The translations under genes and the position numbers were made by a program. Below the pieces are notes generated by a model. It ran no database searches. It worked only from the letters and a program-made list of their open reading frames with translations, and had not been told where the DNA came from. This document shows, in pieces, positions 2,132 through 63,456 of a DNA stretch of 64,000 bases. Each line of letters starts with the position of its first letter. Position 1 is the stretch's first letter. This stretch comes from a virus, in IMG/VR virus record IMGVR_UViG_3300013137_000018, positions 1 through 64,000 of that record, one strand, 5' to 3'.

Positions 2132-3793
2132 ATGATAGTAACAACATCTGTTTGTGTAAAAATTCAGGGACCAAATATAAAATATTATAGACAATTAGGT
2201 TATAATGTAAAAGTTGGTGAAATTTTAACAATTCCTGTAGAACATTTAAGTAAAAAATCACATCATAAAGTTAAAATAAAATGTGATGATTGTGGAATAG
2301 AAAAAGAAACTTTTTATTTCGCATATATCAAATATTTAGAAAAATCACCAGACAATAAATATCGTTGTAATAAATGTAACAATGTATTGAGAGAAAAAAC
2401 CTGTTTAGAAAAATATGGTGTTAAAAATCCAATTCAATCAGAAGAAATAAAAGAAAAAAGAACTCAATTATTTTTAGAAAAATATGGTGTAGAACATTAT
2501 AATAAATTGGACATTTTCAAAGAAAAACGAAAAAACACTAATTTAGAAAAATATGGAACCAAAACACCTATGGAAAACGAAACAATTAAAAATAAACAAT
2601 TAAAAACAACTTTTGATAAATTTGGCGTAAAATGTTCGTTACAAAACGAAAATGTTAAAATCAAAACATTAAAAACAATGAATGATAGATATGGAGTTGA
2701 TTATTCGATGCAAAATACCGAAATTAAAGAAAAAATTTTAACAAAAAGTTTAGAAACAATAAAATACAAAATTCAAGAAAAAAACGAACATATACTAAAA
2801 ATATCAAATAATATATATACTATTAAATGTGATTCATGTAATAAAATATACGAAATCACTCCTCATATGTACTATCAAAGACGAATACAAAACACAGTGC
2901 AATGTACAATATGCAATCCAATAGGTAATAAATTTTCTGGTAAAGAAAATTTATTACTGAATTTTATAAAAGAAAACTATAACGGTGAAATTATTTTAAA
3001 TAGTAGAAATATTATATCTCCATATGAATTGGATATTTATTTACCAGAATTAAAAATAGCTTTTGAATTTAATGGTTTATATTGGCATTCAGAATTATAT
3101 AAAGAAAAAAATTATCACAAAAACAAAACTGAAAAATGCTTTGAAAAAGGAATTCAACTAATTCATGTTTGGGAAGATGATTGGAATTATAAACAAGAAA
3201 TAGTTAAATCAATGATTTTAAATAAATTATATAAAACATCTAATAGAATATTTGCAAGAAAATGTGAAATTAAAGAAATTAATGATAATAGATTAGTTAA
3301 AGATTTTTTAAATGAAAATCATATTCAAGGTTTTGTTGGATCTAGTATAAAATTGGGTTTGTTTTATAATAATGAATTAATTTCTTTAATGACTTTTGGT
3401 AAAAAACGAATTTTTATGAATTCAGTTTCAAAAGAAAATGAATGGGAACTTTTAAGATTTTGTAATAAATTGAATACAAATGTGATAGGTGGTGCTAGTA
3501 AATTATTTAAATATTTTATTAAAAATTTTACATTTAAAGAAATAACTACATATGCAGATAGAAGTTATTCAAATGGTAAATTGTATGAAACAATTGGTTT
3601 AAATTTTATGAGTAAAACGAATCCAAACTATTATTATATAATAGACGGTGTAAGAAAACATAGATTTGGTTTTAGGAAAGATATTCTAATTAATGAAGGC
3701 TATGATAAAAATAAATCTGAACACGAAATTATGTTAGAAAGAAAAATAAATAGAATTTATGATTCAGGTTCGCTTAAATATACATTTGAATAA
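2132..3793 (+). CDS. Vsr-like (EDxHD-type) homing endonuclease with repeat DNA-binding modules
   Basis: A 553-residue free-standing homing endonuclease. Residues about 45-90 hold a zinc-binding module (CDDCG ... CNKC). Residues 90-210 hold five imperfect copies of an EKYGVxNPxQ-type module that recurs in phage homing endonucleases and probably reads DNA. A second CxxC pair (CDSC, CTIC) lies near 235-270. The nuclease core is at about 290-355, with ELDIYLPELKIAFEFNGLYWH then H and VWEDDW; the E/D-EF-G-WH pattern matches the Vsr-fold EDxHD family. The C-terminal 180 residues (FLNENHIQGFVGSS onward, ending in FRKDIL and EHEIMLERK) look like a GNAT-type fold often joined to these enzymes. The ATG lies 52 bases after the preceding gene, behind an A/T-rich leader. 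A close relative faces it from the other strand. Confidence 0.85.
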   Translation: MIVTTSVCVKIQGPNIKYYRQLGYNVKVGEILTIPVEHLSKKSHHKVKIKCDDCGIEKETFYFAYIKYLEKSPDNKYRCNKCNNVLREKTCLEKYGVKNPIQSEEIKEKRTQLFLEKYGVEHYNKLDIFKEKRKNTNLEKYGTKTPMENETIKNKQLKTTFDKFGVKCSLQNENVKIKTLKTMNDRYGVDYSMQNTEIKEKILTKSLETIKYKIQEKNEHILKISNNIYTIKCDSCNKIYEITPHMYYQRRIQNTVQCTICNPIGNKFSGKENLLLNFIKENYNGEIILNSRNIISPYELDIYLPELKIAFEFNGLYWHSELYKEKNYHKNKTEKCFEKGIQLIHVWEDDWNYKQEIVKSMILNKLYKTSNRIFARKCEIKEINDNRLVKDFLNENHIQGFVGSSIKLGLFYNNELISLMTFGKKRIFMNSVSKENEWELLRFCNKLNTNVIGGASKLFKYFIKNFTFKEITTYADRSYSNGKLYETIGLNFMSKTNPNYYYIIDGVRKHRFGFRKDILINEGYDKNKSEHEIMLERKINRIYDSGSLKYTFE

Positions 3794-3860
3794 TTTTTTA
3801 TCTTCCTACACATAACAAGGTGTATAAGAAAGTTTGCTATAAACAGTTAAAAATTTACCC

Positions 3861-5375
3861 TTAAAAAGTAAATTTTAAATTACCAGCATTATAAATTCTA
3901 TAAAAATTTCTTTCTAACATTATTTCATGTTCTGTTTTATTAGAATTAAATCCTTCTTTAACAAGAACGTCTTTCCTAAAATTAAATCTATAATATCTTT
4001 TTTTATCAATTACATAATAATAATTTGATTTTGTTTTTAAAACGAATTTAAATCCTAATTTTTTATAAAGATTTCCATTCGAATGACTTCTATCTGCATA
4101 AGTTATTATTTCTTTTGATTTATAATTTTTAATAAAATATTTAAATAATTTACTAGCGCCACCTACTACATTAGTATTTAATTTGTTACAAAAACGAATT
4201 AATTCGTATTCGTCATCTTTATTAATAGTATTCATTATTTTTCTTTTTTTACCAAAAGTCATTAAACTAACCAATTCGTTTTTTATAAATAAGCCTATTT
4301 TTATATTTGAACCAACGAATCCTTGAATATGATTTTCATTTAAAAATTCTTTAACTAATTTATTATCATCAATTTCTTTGATTTTACATTTTCTAGCAAA
4401 TATTTTATTAGATGTCTTTCCTAATTTATTTAAAATCATTGACTTAACTATTTCTTGTTTATAATTCCAATCATCTTCCCAAATATGAACTAGTTGAATT
4501 CCTTTTTCTTCGCACAAATCACTTTTCATTGTGTGATAATTTTTATCTTTATACAATTCATTATGCCAATAAAGACCATTAAATTCGAATGCTAAACTTA
4601 AATCTGGTAAATAAATGTCTAATTCATAAGGTTTTATAATTTCTCTTGAATTTTCTATTATTGTTTTGTTATAATTTTTTGTTATAAAATTTAACAATTT
4701 ATTTTCTACATCTGAAAATTGAATTCCTATTGGATTACATATTGTACATATATTTGCATTATATTTATATCTATCATATAATAAAAATCTATTTATTTCA
4801 AATTCATGTCCTTTATCACATTTAAATTTTATTAAATGTTTATCACTATCATAATTTATAAATAAAAAATTTGTATATTTTTTAATAATTCTTTTAATTT
4901 TTGATAAAGTTTGTTTTAGTCTAACTTCCTTATTTTGTGATACTACTTTAGTGCCGTATTTTTTAAAATTAGTTTCATATAATTTGTTTTTTATTATATT
5001 ATTTTGTAATGCCCATTCTGTGCCATATATTTTTTTATTAGTTTCTTTTATTTTTAGTTTTAAATCAATACTCTGCATAGGAAATTCGACACCATATTTT
5101 TTAATCATTGTTTTTTTTCTTCTTTCTAGATTACAAATATTACAATAATATAAATTATTATTATTGTTAATATATTTAATATATGTTTTATATGACATAT
5201 ATTTAATTGTTCCACATTTGTCACAACTTACTTCAACTTTTACATGAGAGCCTAATGTAACATTCTCAATATCAATTTCTATTTCATCATTTAATTTTAA
5301 ATCATTAAATATTTTAGAGTAATGCTTTATGTTTATATTATTTATTCTTATTTTAACCTTTTTTGTTATTAACAT
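3861..5375 (-). CDS. Second Vsr-like homing endonuclease, convergent paralogue
   Basis: A 504-residue paralogue of the gene at 2132-3793, on the opposite strand, 3' end to 3' end with a 67-base gap. The order is the same: zinc module (CDKCG ... CNIC) at about 50-85, three rather than five KYGVEFPMQ-like modules, a second CxxC region near 185-215, the EDxHD-type nuclease core at about 240-310 (ELDIYLPDLSLAFEFNGLYWH, HIWEDDW), and the GNAT-like C-terminal part. Similarity is highest over the nuclease core and C-terminal part and falls off in the N-terminal modules, which suggests target specificity changed while the catalytic part was kept. It separates the gene at 5476 from the baseplate genes. 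An intact frame suggests recent activity. Confidence 0.85.
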   Translation of the reverse strand: MLITKKVKIRINNINIKHYSKIFNDLKLNDEIEIDIENVTLGSHVKVEVSCDKCGTIKYMSYKTYIKYINNNNNLYYCNICNLERRKKTMIKKYGVEFPMQSIDLKLKIKETNKKIYGTEWALQNNIIKNKLYETNFKKYGTKVVSQNKEVRLKQTLSKIKRIIKKYTNFLFINYDSDKHLIKFKCDKGHEFEINRFLLYDRYKYNANICTICNPIGIQFSDVENKLLNFITKNYNKTIIENSREIIKPYELDIYLPDLSLAFEFNGLYWHNELYKDKNYHTMKSDLCEEKGIQLVHIWEDDWNYKQEIVKSMILNKLGKTSNKIFARKCKIKEIDDNKLVKEFLNENHIQGFVGSNIKIGLFIKNELVSLMTFGKKRKIMNTINKDDEYELIRFCNKLNTNVVGGASKLFKYFIKNYKSKEIITYADRSHSNGNLYKKLGFKFVLKTKSNYYYVIDKKRYYRFNFRKDVLVKEGFNSNKTEHEIMLERNFYRIYNAGNLKFTF

Positions 5376-50154: not shown

Positions 50155-50268
50155 TTTAATTTCTTTTATATATAAAAATTCAAAAACAAAATACTTATTT
50201 TGTAATGATTTTTGATAATCTAAAGAGTGAATAAAACTATTTTTTAAAATTAATATAAAAACAGTTAT

Positions 50269-51047
50269 ACTAAAGTAAAAATAATTTGTAAAAAACACGG
50301 AGTTTTTGAACAAAAACCAAATTCACACTTAAATATCATTCATAATAATAAATATGATTATTCAATGGTAGAATATAAAAATTATAAGGAAAATGTAAAA
50401 ATAATATGTCCAGAACATGGCGAATTTTATCAAAGAGTTAGTAATCATTTAAATGGTAATGGTTGCACAGAATGTGATAATAAAAATAGAAGAAATAAAG
50501 ATTATATCGAAAAGTGTAGACTAAAATTTAAAAATAAGTATGATTATTCATTGGTTGATTATAAAAATAATAAAACTAAAGTAAAAATAATTTGTAAAAT
50601 ACACGGAATTTTTGAACAATAAAAGACCATTTAAATGGAAATGATTGTTCCAATAAAAAAATGAATACAAATCTATTTATTGAAAAATCAAAAATAATAC
50701 ATGGGAATTTATACGATTATTCATTAGTAGAATATAAAAACGCTTTTGAGAAAATAAAATAATAATATACAATATGAATATCAAAAAAGTTTTGACGATT
50801 GTAAACATATTTTAAAACTACCATTCGATTTTTATATTCCAAACAAAAATTTATGTATAGAATATAATGGTATGCAGCATTACAAACCAGTAGACTATTT
50901 CGGTGGGGAAGATGAGTTTAAACTAAGAAAAAAAGAGATAAAATAAAAAAAGATTTTTGTAAGGAATATGGATTAAAATTAAAAATAATTTCATATAAAG
51001 ATAATATTATTAAAAAAATAACTAAGATTTTAAATGCAGAAATATGA
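50269..51047 (+). pseudogene. Decayed Vsr-like homing endonuclease upstream of topoisomerase
   Basis: Broken by several frameshifts and stops, but recognisable throughout. Three copies of a zinc-binding module (KVKIICKKHGVFEQ; KYDYSMVEYKN; HLNGNGCTEC) run from 50269 to about 50760, with a stop at 50620-50622 and a frame change after it. From about 50785 comes the nuclease core DDCKHILKLPFDFYIPNKN, LCIEYNGMQHYKPVDYF, and from about 50940 in another frame KKDFCKEYGLKLKIISYKDN. The D-FYIP-IEYNGxQHY pattern is that of Vsr-fold homing endonucleases. Its last codons overlap the ATG of the topoisomerase gene. It accounts for the 880 bases between 50154 and 51034. Confidence 0.8.
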
Positions 51048-52821
51048 AAAATTAACTCCAATAGAACATGTCTTGAAAAGACCTGGTATGTACATTGGTG
51101 ATAATCAAAATAATTTGAGAAATATATTTGTTGTTACAGATTCCGAATTAGATGAAATAAAATTAACGCAAAAAATAGTAAAATATAATCCTGGATTTTG
51201 TAAATTATTCGATGAAATTATTACTAATGCGGCAGATCATTGTATAAGAACACAAAAAGTAAAATATATTAAAGTTTATGTTTATCAAGATCACATAGAA
51301 GTAGAAAATGATGGACCAGGTATACCAATTGAAATGCACAAAGAACATAAATTGTATATACCCGAAATGATATTCGGTCATTTACATAGCGGTTCTAATT
51401 TTGATGATTCTGAAGAAAGAACTTGGGGCGGAATGAATGGTTTAGGCGCTAAATTAACAAACATCTTTTCCAAAAAATTTATTATAGAGACTGGTGATGG
51501 CAAAAAGAATTATTATCAAGAATTTACAAACAATCTTGATAAAATAGAAAAACCATCTATTACAAAATCAAGCAAAAATTATACGAGAATATCTTATTAT
51601 CCAGACTTTGAAAGATTTGGATTAGAATCTATAACACCCGAAATAGAACAAATTCTTATGAAAAGAGTTATAGATATTTCTGTTTATTGTCCTAAGGTTA
51701 AAGTTTATTATAATGATAAACAAATACCAATCAAGACTTTCAAAGATTACATGAAAATGTATCTTACACCAGAATCAGAAACATTCTATGAAAAATTAAA
51801 TGAAGATTGGGAAATAGGTATATCATCTTCTTCCGATGATACATTTCAACAAGTTTCCATGGTTAATGGTATAGCAACTATTAACGGTGGTTCTCATGTT
51901 AATCATGTTACTAATCAAATAGTTACACAAGTAATAGACACACTTCAAAAGAAACATAAAAAGATTAAGATAAAACCAGCTGATGTAAAAAATAAATTGT
52001 TTATATTTTTGAATAGTAAAGTTGTAAATCCTATTTTTGATGCACAGACAAAAGAAACATTGACAAGTAAATTAACACAAAAAGACATTGGTGGTGTAAA
52101 TGTTTCTGATAAATTAATAAAGCAATTATTACAATCTAATATAGTTGAAGATATTTTAAATTATATTCAATTAAAAGAAAACGCAGAATTAAAAAAATTA
52201 AATAAAGGTAAAGTATCAAAAGTTAAAGTAAAGAAACTTGATGATGCAAATTTTGCAGGAACATCACAATCTGAAAAGACTTATTTAGCATTAACTGAAG
52301 GTGATAGTGCAAAATCTTTTTGCATTAGTGGCTTTGAAAGTACAGGAAGGGATTATTGGGGGGTTTTTCCATTAAAAGGAAAACCGTTGAATGTGCGTGA
52401 TTCATCAATGGCTAAAATAAAAGAAAATGAAGAAATACAAAATATAGTTTCAGCATTAGGATTAGAATTTGGCAAAAAATATACTTCAACAAAGGAATTG
52501 AGATATGGTAATTTGGTATTAATAACAGATGCGGATTGTATAGAAGAAAATACTTTGATAAGAACTAAAAGAGGTGATATAAAAATAAAAGATTTGACAT
52601 ATGATGATTTAGTTTTAACTCATTCAGGAAAATATAGACGTATTAAAAAAATTATAAAAACAAATAAAAAAAAATACGTGGAGATTGAAATTAATGGAAA
52701 AATATTAAAAGTTAGTGAATATCATAAAATGATAGTTATTAGAGACGGTGAGCAGTTAGAATTGTTTGCAAAAGACATATTAAAAACAGATTTGTTATTA
52801 TTTAGAAAAAATTCATCATAA
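51034..52821 (+). CDS. Type IIA topoisomerase, N-terminal half with N-intein
   Basis: A 595-residue protein. Residues 10-25 (HVLKRPGMYIGD) and the GHKL ATPase motifs follow: FDEIITNAADH at about 59-69, VENDGPGIPIE near 90-100, and TWGGMNGLGAKLTNIF near 130-145. The transducer domain follows, then the TOPRIM domain opens with YLALTEGDSAKSF at about 417-429 and continues PLKGKPLNVRD to LVLITDAD at 494-501. There, exactly in the metal-binding DxDxD motif, Cys502 begins a 94-residue N-intein and the frame ends with TAA. The rest of the enzyme lies in the next gene. Together they form a fused B+A enzyme like eukaryotic and large-virus topoisomerase II, unlike the T4 gp39/60/52 arrangement. Start ATG 51034 overlaps the decayed endonuclease. 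Confidence 0.88.
   Translation: MQKYEKLTPIEHVLKRPGMYIGDNQNNLRNIFVVTDSELDEIKLTQKIVKYNPGFCKLFDEIITNAADHCIRTQKVKYIKVYVYQDHIEVENDGPGIPIEMHKEHKLYIPEMIFGHLHSGSNFDDSEERTWGGMNGLGAKLTNIFSKKFIIETGDGKKNYYQEFTNNLDKIEKPSITKSSKNYTRISYYPDFERFGLESITPEIEQILMKRVIDISVYCPKVKVYYNDKQIPIKTFKDYMKMYLTPESETFYEKLNEDWEIGISSSSDDTFQQVSMVNGIATINGGSHVNHVTNQIVTQVIDTLQKKHKKIKIKPADVKNKLFIFLNSKVVNPIFDAQTKETLTSKLTQKDIGGVNVSDKLIKQLLQSNIVEDILNYIQLKENAELKKLNKGKVSKVKVKKLDDANFAGTSQSEKTYLALTEGDSAKSFCISGFESTGRDYWGVFPLKGKPLNVRDSSMAKIKENEEIQNIVSALGLEFGKKYTSTKELRYGNLVLITDADCIEENTLIRTKRGDIKIKDLTYDDLVLTHSGKYRRIKKIIKTNKKKYVEIEINGKILKVSEYHKMIVIRDGEQLELFAKDILKTDLLLFRKNSS
52537..52818 (+). other. N-intein in topoisomerase TOPRIM motif
   Basis: Residues 502-595 of the first half. 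Block A starts at Cys502 (CIEENTLIRTKRGDIKIKD); block B is KILKVSEYHKMIVI with S-x-x-H at 561-564 (Ser for Thr). It ends TDLLLFRKNSS then TAA. Extein junction DAD|C. Confidence 0.85.
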
Positions 52822-52887
52822 TCTATTGGCATTGTAATCCGAAAATATAACAGATTTTAAAAATAAAAATAAAAATATAATATATTT

Positions 52888-53037
52888 ATGATAAATTTAA
52901 ATGAATATGATTTTTATAAAATAGATAATGTTAGTATAAAAATTAATGATATAAAAGAAAAATATTACGATATAGAAATAGAAGATGATAATACTTTTCA
53001 TATTGTGTCAGATAATGATTTAATATTAACACACAAT
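52888..53037 (+). other. C-intein in topoisomerase TOPRIM motif
   Basis: Residues 1-50 of the second half. Block F is KYYDIEIEDDNTFHI at about 25-39; block G ILTHN at 46-50 with penultimate His and final Asn both present; +1 residue Cys51 starts CDGSHIKGLL. Confidence 0.85.
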
Positions 53038-54786
53038 TGTGACGGAAGTCATATAAAGGGACTACTTATAAATTTTTTCGAAAATTTTTTCCCAGAATTA
53101 TTAACTTTAGATTTTATATATGAATTTGTAACCCCGATTATAAAGGCGGAATATAAAAATGATATAAAATATTTTTACAAATTAAATGATTATACTAAAT
53201 GGAAAAATACAAAAACATCAAATAATTATACAATCAAGTATTTTAAAGGGTTAGGTACATTAGAACCTTATGAGGCAAAAATGTTTTTTAAGGATATTAA
53301 AAAACATCTTATAAAATTTAATTATGATAAACCAATAGAAACAAAAGATATTATAGACCTAGTTTTCAATAAGAAGCGTTCAGATGATAGAAAAGAATGG
53401 TTGTTAAATTATAAACCAGGTATATTAATTGACAAATTTGGTGAAAAAACGACATATAATGATTTTTTTAATAAAGAATTTATTGAATTTTCAATGTATG
53501 ATAACATACGTTCTATACCTTCTGTTATTGACGGATTAAAACCTTCACAAAGGAAAATATTATATGCAACATTAAAGAAAAAATTATTCAGTGATACCAA
53601 AGTCAGTCAATTTAGTGGATATGTTATAGAGCAGACATCGTATCACCATGGAAATGTGTCACTTGAAGATGCAATCGTGTCAATGGCTCAGGATTTTGTG
53701 GGGTCTAATAATTTAAATTTACTATTACCGAAAGGACAATTTGGTACTAGAATAAATGGTGGTAAAGACGCAGCATCCAGTAGATATATTTTTACAAAAT
53801 TGAACCCCCTTACAAGATACATTTTCAAAGAAGAAGATGATGACATTTTAAATTATTTAGATGATGATGGTTTTTCTATTGAACCAGAATGGTACACACC
53901 AGTAATTCCTATGATTCTTATTAATGGTGCAGAAGGTATTGGAACAGGTTGGTCAACAAAACTACCAAACTATGATCCTGCAGATATTATTAAATATTTA
54001 GTATTGAAAATAAAAGATAAAGATGTTGAACCATTACATCCTAAATATAAAGGATTTAAAGGAAAAATAGTATTCGATTCTGAAAATAATAGATACATCA
54101 CCAGAGGTATAATTAAAAAGGTTAATATGAGTACATTAAATATTAGCGAATTACCTATTGGTATGTGGAATGATAAATATTATGAGATATTGGATGAACT
54201 TGTAAATGATAAAATTATTAAGGATTACTCTAAAAACGATACAGACACAAAGGTTGATATTACAATAAATATATCAAGAGAGAGTTTAAAAGATATTGAA
54301 AATAGATTGATTGAAACTTTCAAATTAGAAACATATTTAAGTATATCAAATATGCATCTTTTTAATAAAGATGGTCAGATTCACAGATATGAAAGTATAG
54401 ATGAAATTATAAATGAGTTTGTGGAAGTAAGACTCGAATTCTATGAAAAAAGAAAAGAGTATATTTTATCACAATTAGAAAGAGATAGAAAGATTTTATT
54501 TAACAAGATGAAATTCATTAATGAAATTTTAAAAGGTTCATTAGAATTGAAAAATAAGAAACGAGATGAAATTGAATCAAAGATGGAAGAATTAGAAATA
54601 TCTAAACTCGATGATTCATATTCATATTTATTAAATATGTCTTTAGTGTCTTTGACTACTGAAAAATTGGCTGAATTAAAAAAGTTATATTCTGATAAAA
54701 AAGAAGAAATAGAAGCCTTGAGTAAGACTTCTATTAAACAACTTTGGTTAAAGGATCTTAATGACCTTTATAAGAAATTAGGTTAA
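52888..54786 (+). CDS. Type IIA topoisomerase, C-terminal half with C-intein
   Basis: A 632-residue protein. Residues 1-50 are the C-intein. From Cys51, CDGSHIKGLLINFFENFFPELL completes the TOPRIM domain, with KYFKGLGTLEPYEA at 118-130. The breakage-reunion part begins near 185, with SIPSVIDGLKPSQRKILY (209-226), the EQTSYHHGNVSLEDAI region and the active-site tyrosine Tyr300 in AASSRY. A coiled coil at about 500-550 (EVRLEFYEKRKEYILSQLER) forms the C-gate arm. Splicing would give 501 + 582 = 1083 residues, like chlorella-virus-sized topoisomerase II. The frame is the same as the first half, with four in-frame TAA codons in the 66-base gap. Without splicing neither half has a complete TOPRIM motif. 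Confidence 0.88.
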   Translation: MINLNEYDFYKIDNVSIKINDIKEKYYDIEIEDDNTFHIVSDNDLILTHNCDGSHIKGLLINFFENFFPELLTLDFIYEFVTPIIKAEYKNDIKYFYKLNDYTKWKNTKTSNNYTIKYFKGLGTLEPYEAKMFFKDIKKHLIKFNYDKPIETKDIIDLVFNKKRSDDRKEWLLNYKPGILIDKFGEKTTYNDFFNKEFIEFSMYDNIRSIPSVIDGLKPSQRKILYATLKKKLFSDTKVSQFSGYVIEQTSYHHGNVSLEDAIVSMAQDFVGSNNLNLLLPKGQFGTRINGGKDAASSRYIFTKLNPLTRYIFKEEDDDILNYLDDDGFSIEPEWYTPVIPMILINGAEGIGTGWSTKLPNYDPADIIKYLVLKIKDKDVEPLHPKYKGFKGKIVFDSENNRYITRGIIKKVNMSTLNISELPIGMWNDKYYEILDELVNDKIIKDYSKNDTDTKVDITINISRESLKDIENRLIETFKLETYLSISNMHLFNKDGQIHRYESIDEIINEFVEVRLEFYEKRKEYILSQLERDRKILFNKMKFINEILKGSLELKNKKRDEIESKMEELEISKLDDSYSYLLNMSLVSLTTEKLAELKKLYSDKKEEIEALSKTSIKQLWLKDLNDLYKKLG

Positions 54787-61941: not shown

Positions 61942-63456
61942 TTAATTTTTTAAATATATATTTCTAACTGAAGTAGGATGCAAATTATATATTTTAGAAA
62001 TTTCAACATAAGTTTTTCCTTCGTTTCTTAATTTAATCATATTTTTAATTTCTTTTTTTGTTGATTTTGTTTTATGATATTGCCATGTTTTATTTTTAAA
62101 ATCATCAAACTTAGACCATTTTCTATTCAGACCAATACCTTTATAAATTTCTTTATACAATTTAACAGCATTTGTACCACTCCAATTAACACGATACAAA
62201 CCTTTTACTTTTTTGATATTTTTTTTAATATTACAGGATATTTCAGGAAACATATTTTTAATATATTCAGATATTTCATATGAGCATAAAACATCAATAA
62301 ATATATTAGATTTATTTTTATTTGTGTATATACAACCATCACCATCGATTAATCCAACCAACCAATATTTTATCAATTCCTTATCTTGTTGTATTATTTC
62401 AGGTATTTCATTTTTTAAACTTTTTCGTGGTCTCAAATTCCATTTTTTAATATTTTCAATTATATATGGATCTTCTACAACTAAAGAATATGCTTGTTTA
62501 TTTTTAATCAATGGTTTAATATAAATTGGTCTATCGGTATTAATATATTTTTTATATGAATCTATTAATTCATAATCTGTGCTGGTAAGTTCAATAATAT
62601 ATCTAAATTTACCATTTTTCTTAATACAACCATCTGCTGAAATCAATCCTGCAAAATATGATGTTAATTCATCTGCGTCATAAAAACAATCTCTATTATA
62701 ATAATAATTTGTTCGAAATAATTTTATATTATATCTTTTAGACCACCAAACAATTTTATCATTAGAACAACTGCAAATTTCAGCAACTTTTGCTGTATTA
62801 AAATCATTATTTTTTAATAATTTTAAAAGATCTAATTTTTTAAATATTTCATTATTTTCTTTATCAATATAATCAAACATTAAATTAAAATCTTTTAATA
62901 GTCTTTTATAACTTATATCATTTATTATAACATTATTTCCAAAATCTTTCCATGATAATTGCGTCTCACTTATATGATTAGAATAATCCCAAACATTTGG
63001 TCTTATTATAAAAAAACAAATAGCACCAATATTCTCCAAATTATTTTTTTCATTAAAAAATCTGGTATCATCAATACAATAATTTTTATTTGGTTTTATT
63101 AATGACATTAATTTATTAACATGAAAATCTGGATCTGCTTTCCGTATTACCTCTGTTGCCAAATATTGAAGCGCAACTCTTACTGATTTAAACATTATAT
63201 TAGTTTTATCGATTTTATCCAAATCTATATTAGTTAATTCTGAAAGTTTGATTCTTTTTTCATCATTCCAAGGTAATGGATGTTCTAATTCTTTTTCTTT
63301 ATTTTTAATTAAATAATCTCTATCAAAACCATATAGTTCACATACCACATTTTTAACTATATTACCAAAACTTAGTATCGTATATCCTCTTTTTCCTAAT
63401 TCTTGTGCTAGAAGTGTTTTTCCACTTTTTTTTCTACCAGACAATGACACTATCAT
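61942..63456 (-). CDS. dNMP kinase fused to a LAGLIDADG homing endonuclease
   Basis: A 504-residue fusion. Residues 1-195 form a T4 gp1-like deoxynucleoside monophosphate kinase: Walker A GRKKSGKT at 7-14, FKSVRVALQYLATEVIRKAD at about 89-108, IDDTRFFNE near 128-136 and SETQLSW near 163-169. The family phosphorylates dNMPs for phage DNA synthesis. Residues 200-250 look like a helix-turn-helix linker (NTAKVAEICSCSNDKIVWWS). Two LAGLIDADG motifs follow, FAGLISADG (268-276) and LVGLIDGDG (366-374), each followed by a basic beta-rich region, so the nuclease part looks complete. Residues 465-504 form a second HTH (YVEISKIYNLHPTSVRNI). There are no intein splicing blocks, so this is a real end-to-end fusion. 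Promoter-like motif at 63471-63490. Confidence 0.82.
   Translation of the reverse strand: MIVSLSGRKKSGKTLLAQELGKRGYTILSFGNIVKNVVCELYGFDRDYLIKNKEKELEHPLPWNDEKRIKLSELTNIDLDKIDKTNIMFKSVRVALQYLATEVIRKADPDFHVNKLMSLIKPNKNYCIDDTRFFNEKNNLENIGAICFFIIRPNVWDYSNHISETQLSWKDFGNNVIINDISYKRLLKDFNLMFDYIDKENNEIFKKLDLLKLLKNNDFNTAKVAEICSCSNDKIVWWSKRYNIKLFRTNYYYNRDCFYDADELTSYFAGLISADGCIKKNGKFRYIIELTSTDYELIDSYKKYINTDRPIYIKPLIKNKQAYSLVVEDPYIIENIKKWNLRPRKSLKNEIPEIIQQDKELIKYWLVGLIDGDGCIYTNKNKSNIFIDVLCSYEISEYIKNMFPEISCNIKKNIKKVKGLYRVNWSGTNAVKLYKEIYKGIGLNRKWSKFDDFKNKTWQYHKTKSTKKEIKNMIKLRNEGKTYVEISKIYNLHPTSVRNIYLKN

What the first reader, a model, noticed from the sequence alone, without database searches (positions are those of the whole stretch)
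51034..54786. Topoisomerase II is split inside the TOPRIM DxDxD motif by a split-intein-like element
The N-extein ends LITDAD, the C-extein begins CDGSHIKGLL; between them are a 94-residue N-intein, four in-frame TAA codons over 66 bases, and a 50-residue C-intein ending LTHN. All residues expected for splicing are visible: Cys1, S-x-x-H, penultimate His, final Asn, +1 Cys. There is no nuclease gene in the gap, so this would be a compact natural split intein, or a contiguous mini-intein recently cut by stops, since both halves share a frame. T4 also has a broken topoisomerase subunit (gp39/gp60), so this gene seems prone to such elements.
Basis: partly seen in the sequence, partly recalled or inferred. 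Interest (0 to 1): 0.85.

Follow-up and report, generated by a model that had tools for sequence, protein, structure and literature searches.

The report
Split intein interrupting phage topoisomerase II
A huge-phage enzyme that untangles DNA is encoded in two pieces, each carrying half of a self-cutting protein (a split intein) placed in the enzyme's active site, and related phages show that the DNA-cutting gene that once sat between the pieces has been lost here and swapped for others elsewhere.

Summary
Window 51034-52821 and 52888-54786 encode a fused GyrB-GyrA type IIA topoisomerase. It is cut between TDAD and CDG of the TOPRIM DxDxDG motif by a 94-aa N-intein and a 50-aa C-intein with all class-1 splicing residues. 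It is not a recent break or an assembly error. Eight other phage loci are split at the identical residue, and one distant phage has an unsplit 141-aa mini-intein there. Many relatives have an empty site. The space between the halves differs: Vsr-like nuclease (L004), GIY-YIG (L006), HNH (L016, L085), EDxHD (L084), HNH plus a complete EcoRI-family restriction-modification system (L009), or no nuclease (window, L080). The window's 66-bp gap keeps a fossil of a Vsr-like nuclease (17 bp encoding YWHCNP), so the nuclease was there and was deleted. Extein and intein trees conflict, so the intein has moved between phages. Mechanism: trans-splicing of two separately translated halves, after which topoisomerase activity is restored (inferred, not measured). 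This is the known 'fractured gene' arrangement at a host gene for which I found no report. The relatives, with R-M cargo and a three-piece GyrB needing two splicing events, are more surprising than the window.

The parts
51034..52536 (+). N-extein: topoisomerase II ATPase + transducer + first half of TOPRIM, 501 aa, ends LITDAD
   Evidence: phrog_543 4.8e-133, Pfam DNA_gyraseB 2.1e-21; aligned with uninterrupted relatives
52537..52818 (+). N-intein, 94 aa, Cys1, block B SEYH
   Evidence: Pfam Hint_2, PDB split inteins, 36-68% identity among the N-inteins compared pairwise
52819..52887 (+). Stop codon plus 66-bp gap; four in-frame TAA; no nuclease gene
52824..52840 (+). Fossil of a Vsr-like homing endonuclease: 17 bp identical to the L017 gap, encodes YWHCNP in another frame
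   Evidence: 17-bp match against null maximum 14 in 1000 shuffles, WHxNP in 2 of 20000 shuffles
52888..53037 (+). C-intein, 50 aa, own ATG start, block F YYDIEIEDDNTF, ends LTHN
53038..54783 (+). C-extein: second half of TOPRIM from CDGSHIKGLL, TOPRIM_C and GyrA-like cleavage domain, 582 aa
   Evidence: Pfam DNA_topoisoIV 2.9e-117, TOPRIM_C 1.6e-35
50254..51038 (+). Frameshifted pseudogene of a DUF723/EDxHD-type homing endonuclease that runs into the topoisomerase start codon; intact at the same place in L017

Best explanation
A naturally split, nuclease-free class-1 intein sits in the catalytic TOPRIM motif of a phage type IIA topoisomerase. The two genes are translated separately, the second from its own ATG. 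The N- and C-intein halves associate, Cys1 and the +1 Cys carry out the acyl shifts, and Asn cyclisation releases the intein. This joins ...LITDAD to CDGSHIKGLL and restores the metal-binding DxDxDG motif of a 1083-aa enzyme. Historically this was a mobile 'fractured gene' unit with a Vsr-like homing endonuclease between the halves. In this lineage the nuclease was deleted, leaving a 17-bp fossil, while the splicing halves are kept because precise splicing is needed for topoisomerase function. Shown here: anatomy, homology, conservation of splicing residues, ancestral split, nuclease fossil, horizontal movement among relatives. Inferred: trans-splicing activity, dependence of the enzyme on it, translation of the second gene.
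For: All splicing residues are present and kept in the other loci split at the same residue. Sequence and fold matches are to natural split inteins (AceL NrdHF 1.6e-7, Aes123 PolB1 1.7e-5, gp41-1 2.2e-5, Npu DnaE 1.9e-4). Intein-free homologues read straight through DxDxDGxHI, so removing 144 intein residues gives the exact uninterrupted motif. pN is below pS in every N-intein comparison and in nine of ten C-intein comparisons, pN equalling pS in L004/L016. The 17-bp YWHCNP fossil matches the nuclease remnant in L017 and the motif of the intact L004 nuclease. Mobility: inteins of L009 and L016 group at 100/99.9 although their exteins reject that grouping (p-AU 1e-35); L016 and L017 exteins are 83% identical but their inteins 36%.
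Against: No splicing assay, proteomics or expression data. The structure model had low confidence (mean pLDDT 46.8), although its listed best matches were consistently inteins. No clear promoter for the second gene and no obvious Shine-Dalgarno by eye. dS is near saturation at these distances, so selection is only roughly measured.
Confidence: 0.88

Rival explanations
1. A contiguous cis-splicing mini-intein was recently broken by point mutations or by an assembly error; the four TAA are artefacts or new.
For: Both halves are in one frame. A true contiguous 141-aa mini-intein exists at this site in L092/L133.
Against: Eight other loci are split at the same place with gaps of 159 bp to 3.6 kb and different genes inside. 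The C-half starts with its own start codon in those where it is sequenced. The window gap matches a nuclease gene, not intein sequence. Four stops cannot come from one error.
Confidence: 0.03
2. The ribosome skips or reads through the 69 nt, as in T4 gene 60, giving one precursor that splices in cis.
For: The gap is short and in frame, and T4 has a 50-nt bypass three residues away from this site.
Against: Four stops and an in-frame ATG for the second gene. Relatives have kilobase gaps with genes on either strand, where skipping is implausible. No terminator-like hairpin in the gap.
Confidence: 0.03
3. The halves no longer splice; the two proteins assemble non-covalently like T4 gp39/gp60 and the intein pieces are passengers.
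For: Split phage enzymes can work without ligation: T4 topoisomerase, Aeh1 NrdA, phage 25 gp43 (PMC2988022).
Against: Splicing residues and intein sequence are conserved in all loci. Unspliced, 94 and 50 extra residues would lie inside the metal-binding motif.
Confidence: 0.05
4. The interruption is an RNA intron rather than an intein.
For: Huge phages often carry group I introns (PMC12363816).
Against: No Rfam match in the locus or in five relatives. Translated intein motifs are conserved right up to the junctions.
Confidence: 0.01

Closest known systems
Fractured genes with split inteins and Vsr-like homing endonucleases (Dassa et al. 2009, Nucleic Acids Res 37:2560; paper not held, known through citations)
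   Same: Two gene halves, each with an intein half, with a Vsr/EDxHD-type nuclease gene between them in relatives
   Different: Host gene is topoisomerase II, for which I found no report; the nuclease is deleted in the window; relatives carry four nuclease families and an R-M system in the gap
gp41-1 and AceL NrdHF natural split inteins (PDB 6qaz, 6zgq)
   Same: Best sequence and fold matches; split near the usual endonuclease insertion site
   Different: AceL NrdHF is a class 3 intein; this one has Cys1 and Asp in block F, so class 1; only about 21-23% identity in the structural alignment
Split PolB inteins of jumbo phages (MIJ3, PMC6892783; Tenacibaculum phage PTm1 with VSR endonuclease)
   Same: Split intein in a replication gene of a large phage with a nuclease gene nearby
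   Different: Different host gene and site
T4 genes 39/mobA/60 with translational bypass
   Same: The same gene broken at almost the same codons; bypass follows DADHDG, three residues from DAD|CDG
   Different: No intein; T4 uses subunit assembly and ribosome bypass

Membership tests
Natural split intein (class 1) | N-terminal Cys/Ser nucleophile, block B His, C-terminal His-Asn, +1 Cys/Ser/Thr | tested here: met
   C1, SEYH, LTHN, +1 C; kept in the other split loci, with L017's C-half beyond its contig end
Natural split intein (class 1) | Hint sequence/fold | tested here: met
   Pfam Hint_2 2.8e-5, PDB profile 4.4e-7, Foldseek intein hits to 1.6e-7 on a low-confidence model
Natural split intein (class 1) | Halves encoded by separate genes, old split | tested here: met
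   eight other loci split at the same residue
Natural split intein (class 1) | Trans-splicing activity | not testable with these tools
   needs expression assay
Fractured gene (split intein + free-standing homing endonuclease) | Nuclease gene between the halves | tested here: not met
   only a 17-bp fossil in the window; nuclease genes present in L004, L006, L009, L016, L084, L085
T4 gene 60-type bypass | Untranslated gap skipped in one reading, no independent start | tested here: not met
   own ATG and in-frame stops; relatives have kilobase gaps
Group I intron | Rfam-detectable ribozyme at the junction | tested here: not met
   no match

The most novel reading that the evidence does not exclude
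The gap of a trans-splicing intein in an essential active-site motif is a protected harbour in which unrelated nucleases, and even a complete EcoRI-family restriction-modification system, replace one another, so the splicing element and its mobility partner are separable, and an R-M system may spread by homing with it.
Probability: 0.3. Interest if true: 0.75.

Novelty: new member of a known kind. Interest (0 to 1): 0.55.

Why it matters
It adds an essential, drug-targeted enzyme family to the hosts of natural split inteins. With its relatives it lays out the states of the element at one site: empty site, contiguous mini-intein, split with nuclease, split with dead nuclease. It supplies nine natural split inteins at one site, possibly useful for protein ligation, and makes a testable case that nucleases and splicing elements come and go independently.

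Tried and rejected
Rfam search for introns: nothing. Genome-contig scan: only distant bacterial GyrB. Yersinia phage fHe-Yen9-02 hit: an intein in a putative methylase gene, not topoisomerase. Joint alignment of separate N and C halves for structure prediction misaligned, so only N-halves were added and the model stayed weak. The nucleotide comparison of the gap with L006, L004, L009 and L016 gaps gave only A/T-rich matches close to noise. Literature searches for a split intein in topoisomerase II found none in the open library; the library is partial and Dassa 2009 is not held. The huge-phage paper PMC7162821 has no mention of inteins in its main text.

Full report
What is there. Window 51034-52821 encodes 595 aa and 52888-54786 encodes 632 aa, in the same frame. 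The first is a topoisomerase II ATPase/transducer/half-TOPRIM (phrog_543 4.8e-133) followed by a 94-aa N-intein. The second is a 50-aa C-intein followed by the rest of TOPRIM and a GyrA-like domain (DNA_topoisoIV 2.9e-117). The junctions are LITDAD|CIEENT and ILTHN|CDGSHIKGLL. The record is a 66.8-kb viral contig. Its nearest relatives among the public phage records are huge phages, among them the 735-kb LR756501, which has the same fused enzyme without interruption.

The intein is genuine. Pfam Hint_2 matches at 2.8e-5. A profile of six relatives matches the AceL NrdHF and gp41-1 split inteins at 4e-7 to 5e-7. A model of the read-through of the two halves (TAA read as Gln) was of low confidence (pLDDT 46.8), but the 50 best listed structure matches all came from inteins or intein-like (Hint) domains, led by natural split inteins. 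Cys1 and Asp in block F indicate class 1.

The split is old, not a recent break. Distinct loci split at the identical residue are L004, L006 (=L007), L009, L016, L017, L080, L084 and L085. L017 runs off its contig before the second half. Intein-free relatives read DxDxDGxHI straight through; L021 and L031 even have DADCDG without an intein. One distant phage (L092, and the near-identical L133) has an unsplit 141-aa mini-intein at the same residue.

The gap content differs between relatives. L004 has a 326-aa Vsr-like nuclease (EYFGDYWHMNP), whose stop overlaps the ATG of the second half. L006 has a 390-aa GIY-YIG-type protein. L016 and L085 have an HNH-type nuclease on the opposite strand (the HNH reading rests on PHROG homing-endonuclease matches and the motif by eye). 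L084 has a 448-aa CapR/DUF4379/EDxHD-type nuclease. L009 has an HNH-type nuclease plus a D12 adenine methylase (PF02086 5.7e-17) and an EcoRI-family enzyme (PF02963 5.3e-15; EcoRI structures 1.2e-8; 47% identical to a Paracoccus plasmid enzyme that lies beside an adenine methylase). The window and L080 have no nuclease gene.

The window lost its nuclease. Bases 52824-52840 (TATTGGCATTGTAATCC) are identical to part of the L017 gap, where they encode ...EYYGDYWHCNPLFYNK..., the motif seen in the intact L004 nuclease; the window frame reads YWHCNP. A 17-bp shared run exceeds all of 1000 shuffles (maximum 14), and WHxNP arises in 2 of 20000 shuffles. The 159-bp gap of L080 may hold a similar C-terminal remnant (weak match). 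A second, upstream nuclease is also dead in the window: a DUF723/EDxHD gene at 50254-51038 is frameshifted, whereas L017 has it intact in the same place, overlapping the topoisomerase start.

The intein moves. L016 and L017 exteins are 83% identical, but their N-inteins only 36%. L009 and L016 exteins are 52-56% identical, but their inteins 68-72%, and both carry the HNH-type nuclease. The extein tree rejects L009+L016 (p-AU 1e-35) and the intein tree rejects L016+L017 (p-AU 2e-4). These groupings were tested after the identities had been seen. The window, L004 and L006 form an extein clade (100/100), with a Vsr-type fossil, a Vsr-type gene and a GIY-YIG gene respectively, which suggests nuclease exchange within one intein lineage; other orders of events are possible.

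The gene is a hot spot. A second split-intein site lies at the TOPRIM EGD|S motif (L023/L024, L029, L031, L032 = LR756500, L079, L080), and a third at YHHGD|S in GyrA (L032). L080 combines both TOPRIM sites: its middle 212-aa ORF holds a C-intein, a stretch of TOPRIM and an N-intein, so GyrB there would need two trans-splicing events. The T4 bypass lies right after DADHDG, three residues from the window's site, and L139 has an apparent contiguous intein at that T4 position.

How it works. Separate translation, association of the halves, class-1 splicing, and restoration of the metal-binding motif are inferred from the anatomy and established intein chemistry. Nothing here measures splicing. 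Because the site is the catalytic motif, only exact splicing (or exact DNA loss) restores function, which would explain why the intein halves persist after the nuclease died.

Known and new. The arrangement is the 'fractured gene' kind, cited through PMC6892783 and PMC12350094. I found no report of a split intein in topoisomerase II, with the caveat that the library is partial and the founding paper is not held. Membership in natural split inteins is met on every feature testable here; the nuclease feature of fractured genes is not met in the window itself.

Noticed in passing
L009:2588-5687 (IMGVR_UViG_3300042261_000981): A complete EcoRI-family restriction enzyme and D12 adenine methylase lie together with an HNH-type nuclease between the two halves of the split intein.
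   Followed up: partly
L080:482-4876 (IMGVR_UViG_3300014838_001158): GyrB in three pieces with two different split inteins (EGD|S and DAD|CDG); the middle ORF carries a C-intein at one end and an N-intein at the other.
   Followed up: partly
L032:5220-11629 (LR756500, unannotated 462-kb phage): Topoisomerase genes interrupted by split inteins at EGL|S in GyrB and YHHGD|S in GyrA, each with a nuclease-like gene in the gap.
   Followed up: partly
L029:3737-4379: Split intein at EGD|S whose halves are separated by only 4 bp and lie in different frames, with no nuclease.
   Followed up: no
L139:8429-8990: Apparent contiguous intein in GyrB between DPDG and CHINTL, the position of the T4 gene 60 bypass; its first residue looks non-nucleophilic.
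   Followed up: no
window 61942-63456 (-): Deoxynucleoside monophosphate kinase domain fused in frame to what looks like a LAGLIDADG-type endonuclease domain (by eye; the PHROG match is 'endonuclease'); a kinase-like neighbour in L004 (9942-10499) lacks the extension.
   Followed up: partly
window 2132-5375: Two large homing-endonuclease-like genes (phrog_3339) facing each other, on + and - strands.
   Followed up: no
L103:800-2994: Ribonucleotide reductase-like gene ending in an N-intein, followed by a DUF723-like nuclease: another probable fractured gene (by eye).
   Followed up: no
L030:8895-9644, L079:6262-7029: Nuclease-like genes between the GyrB and GyrA parts of the topoisomerase in other phages.
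   Followed up: no
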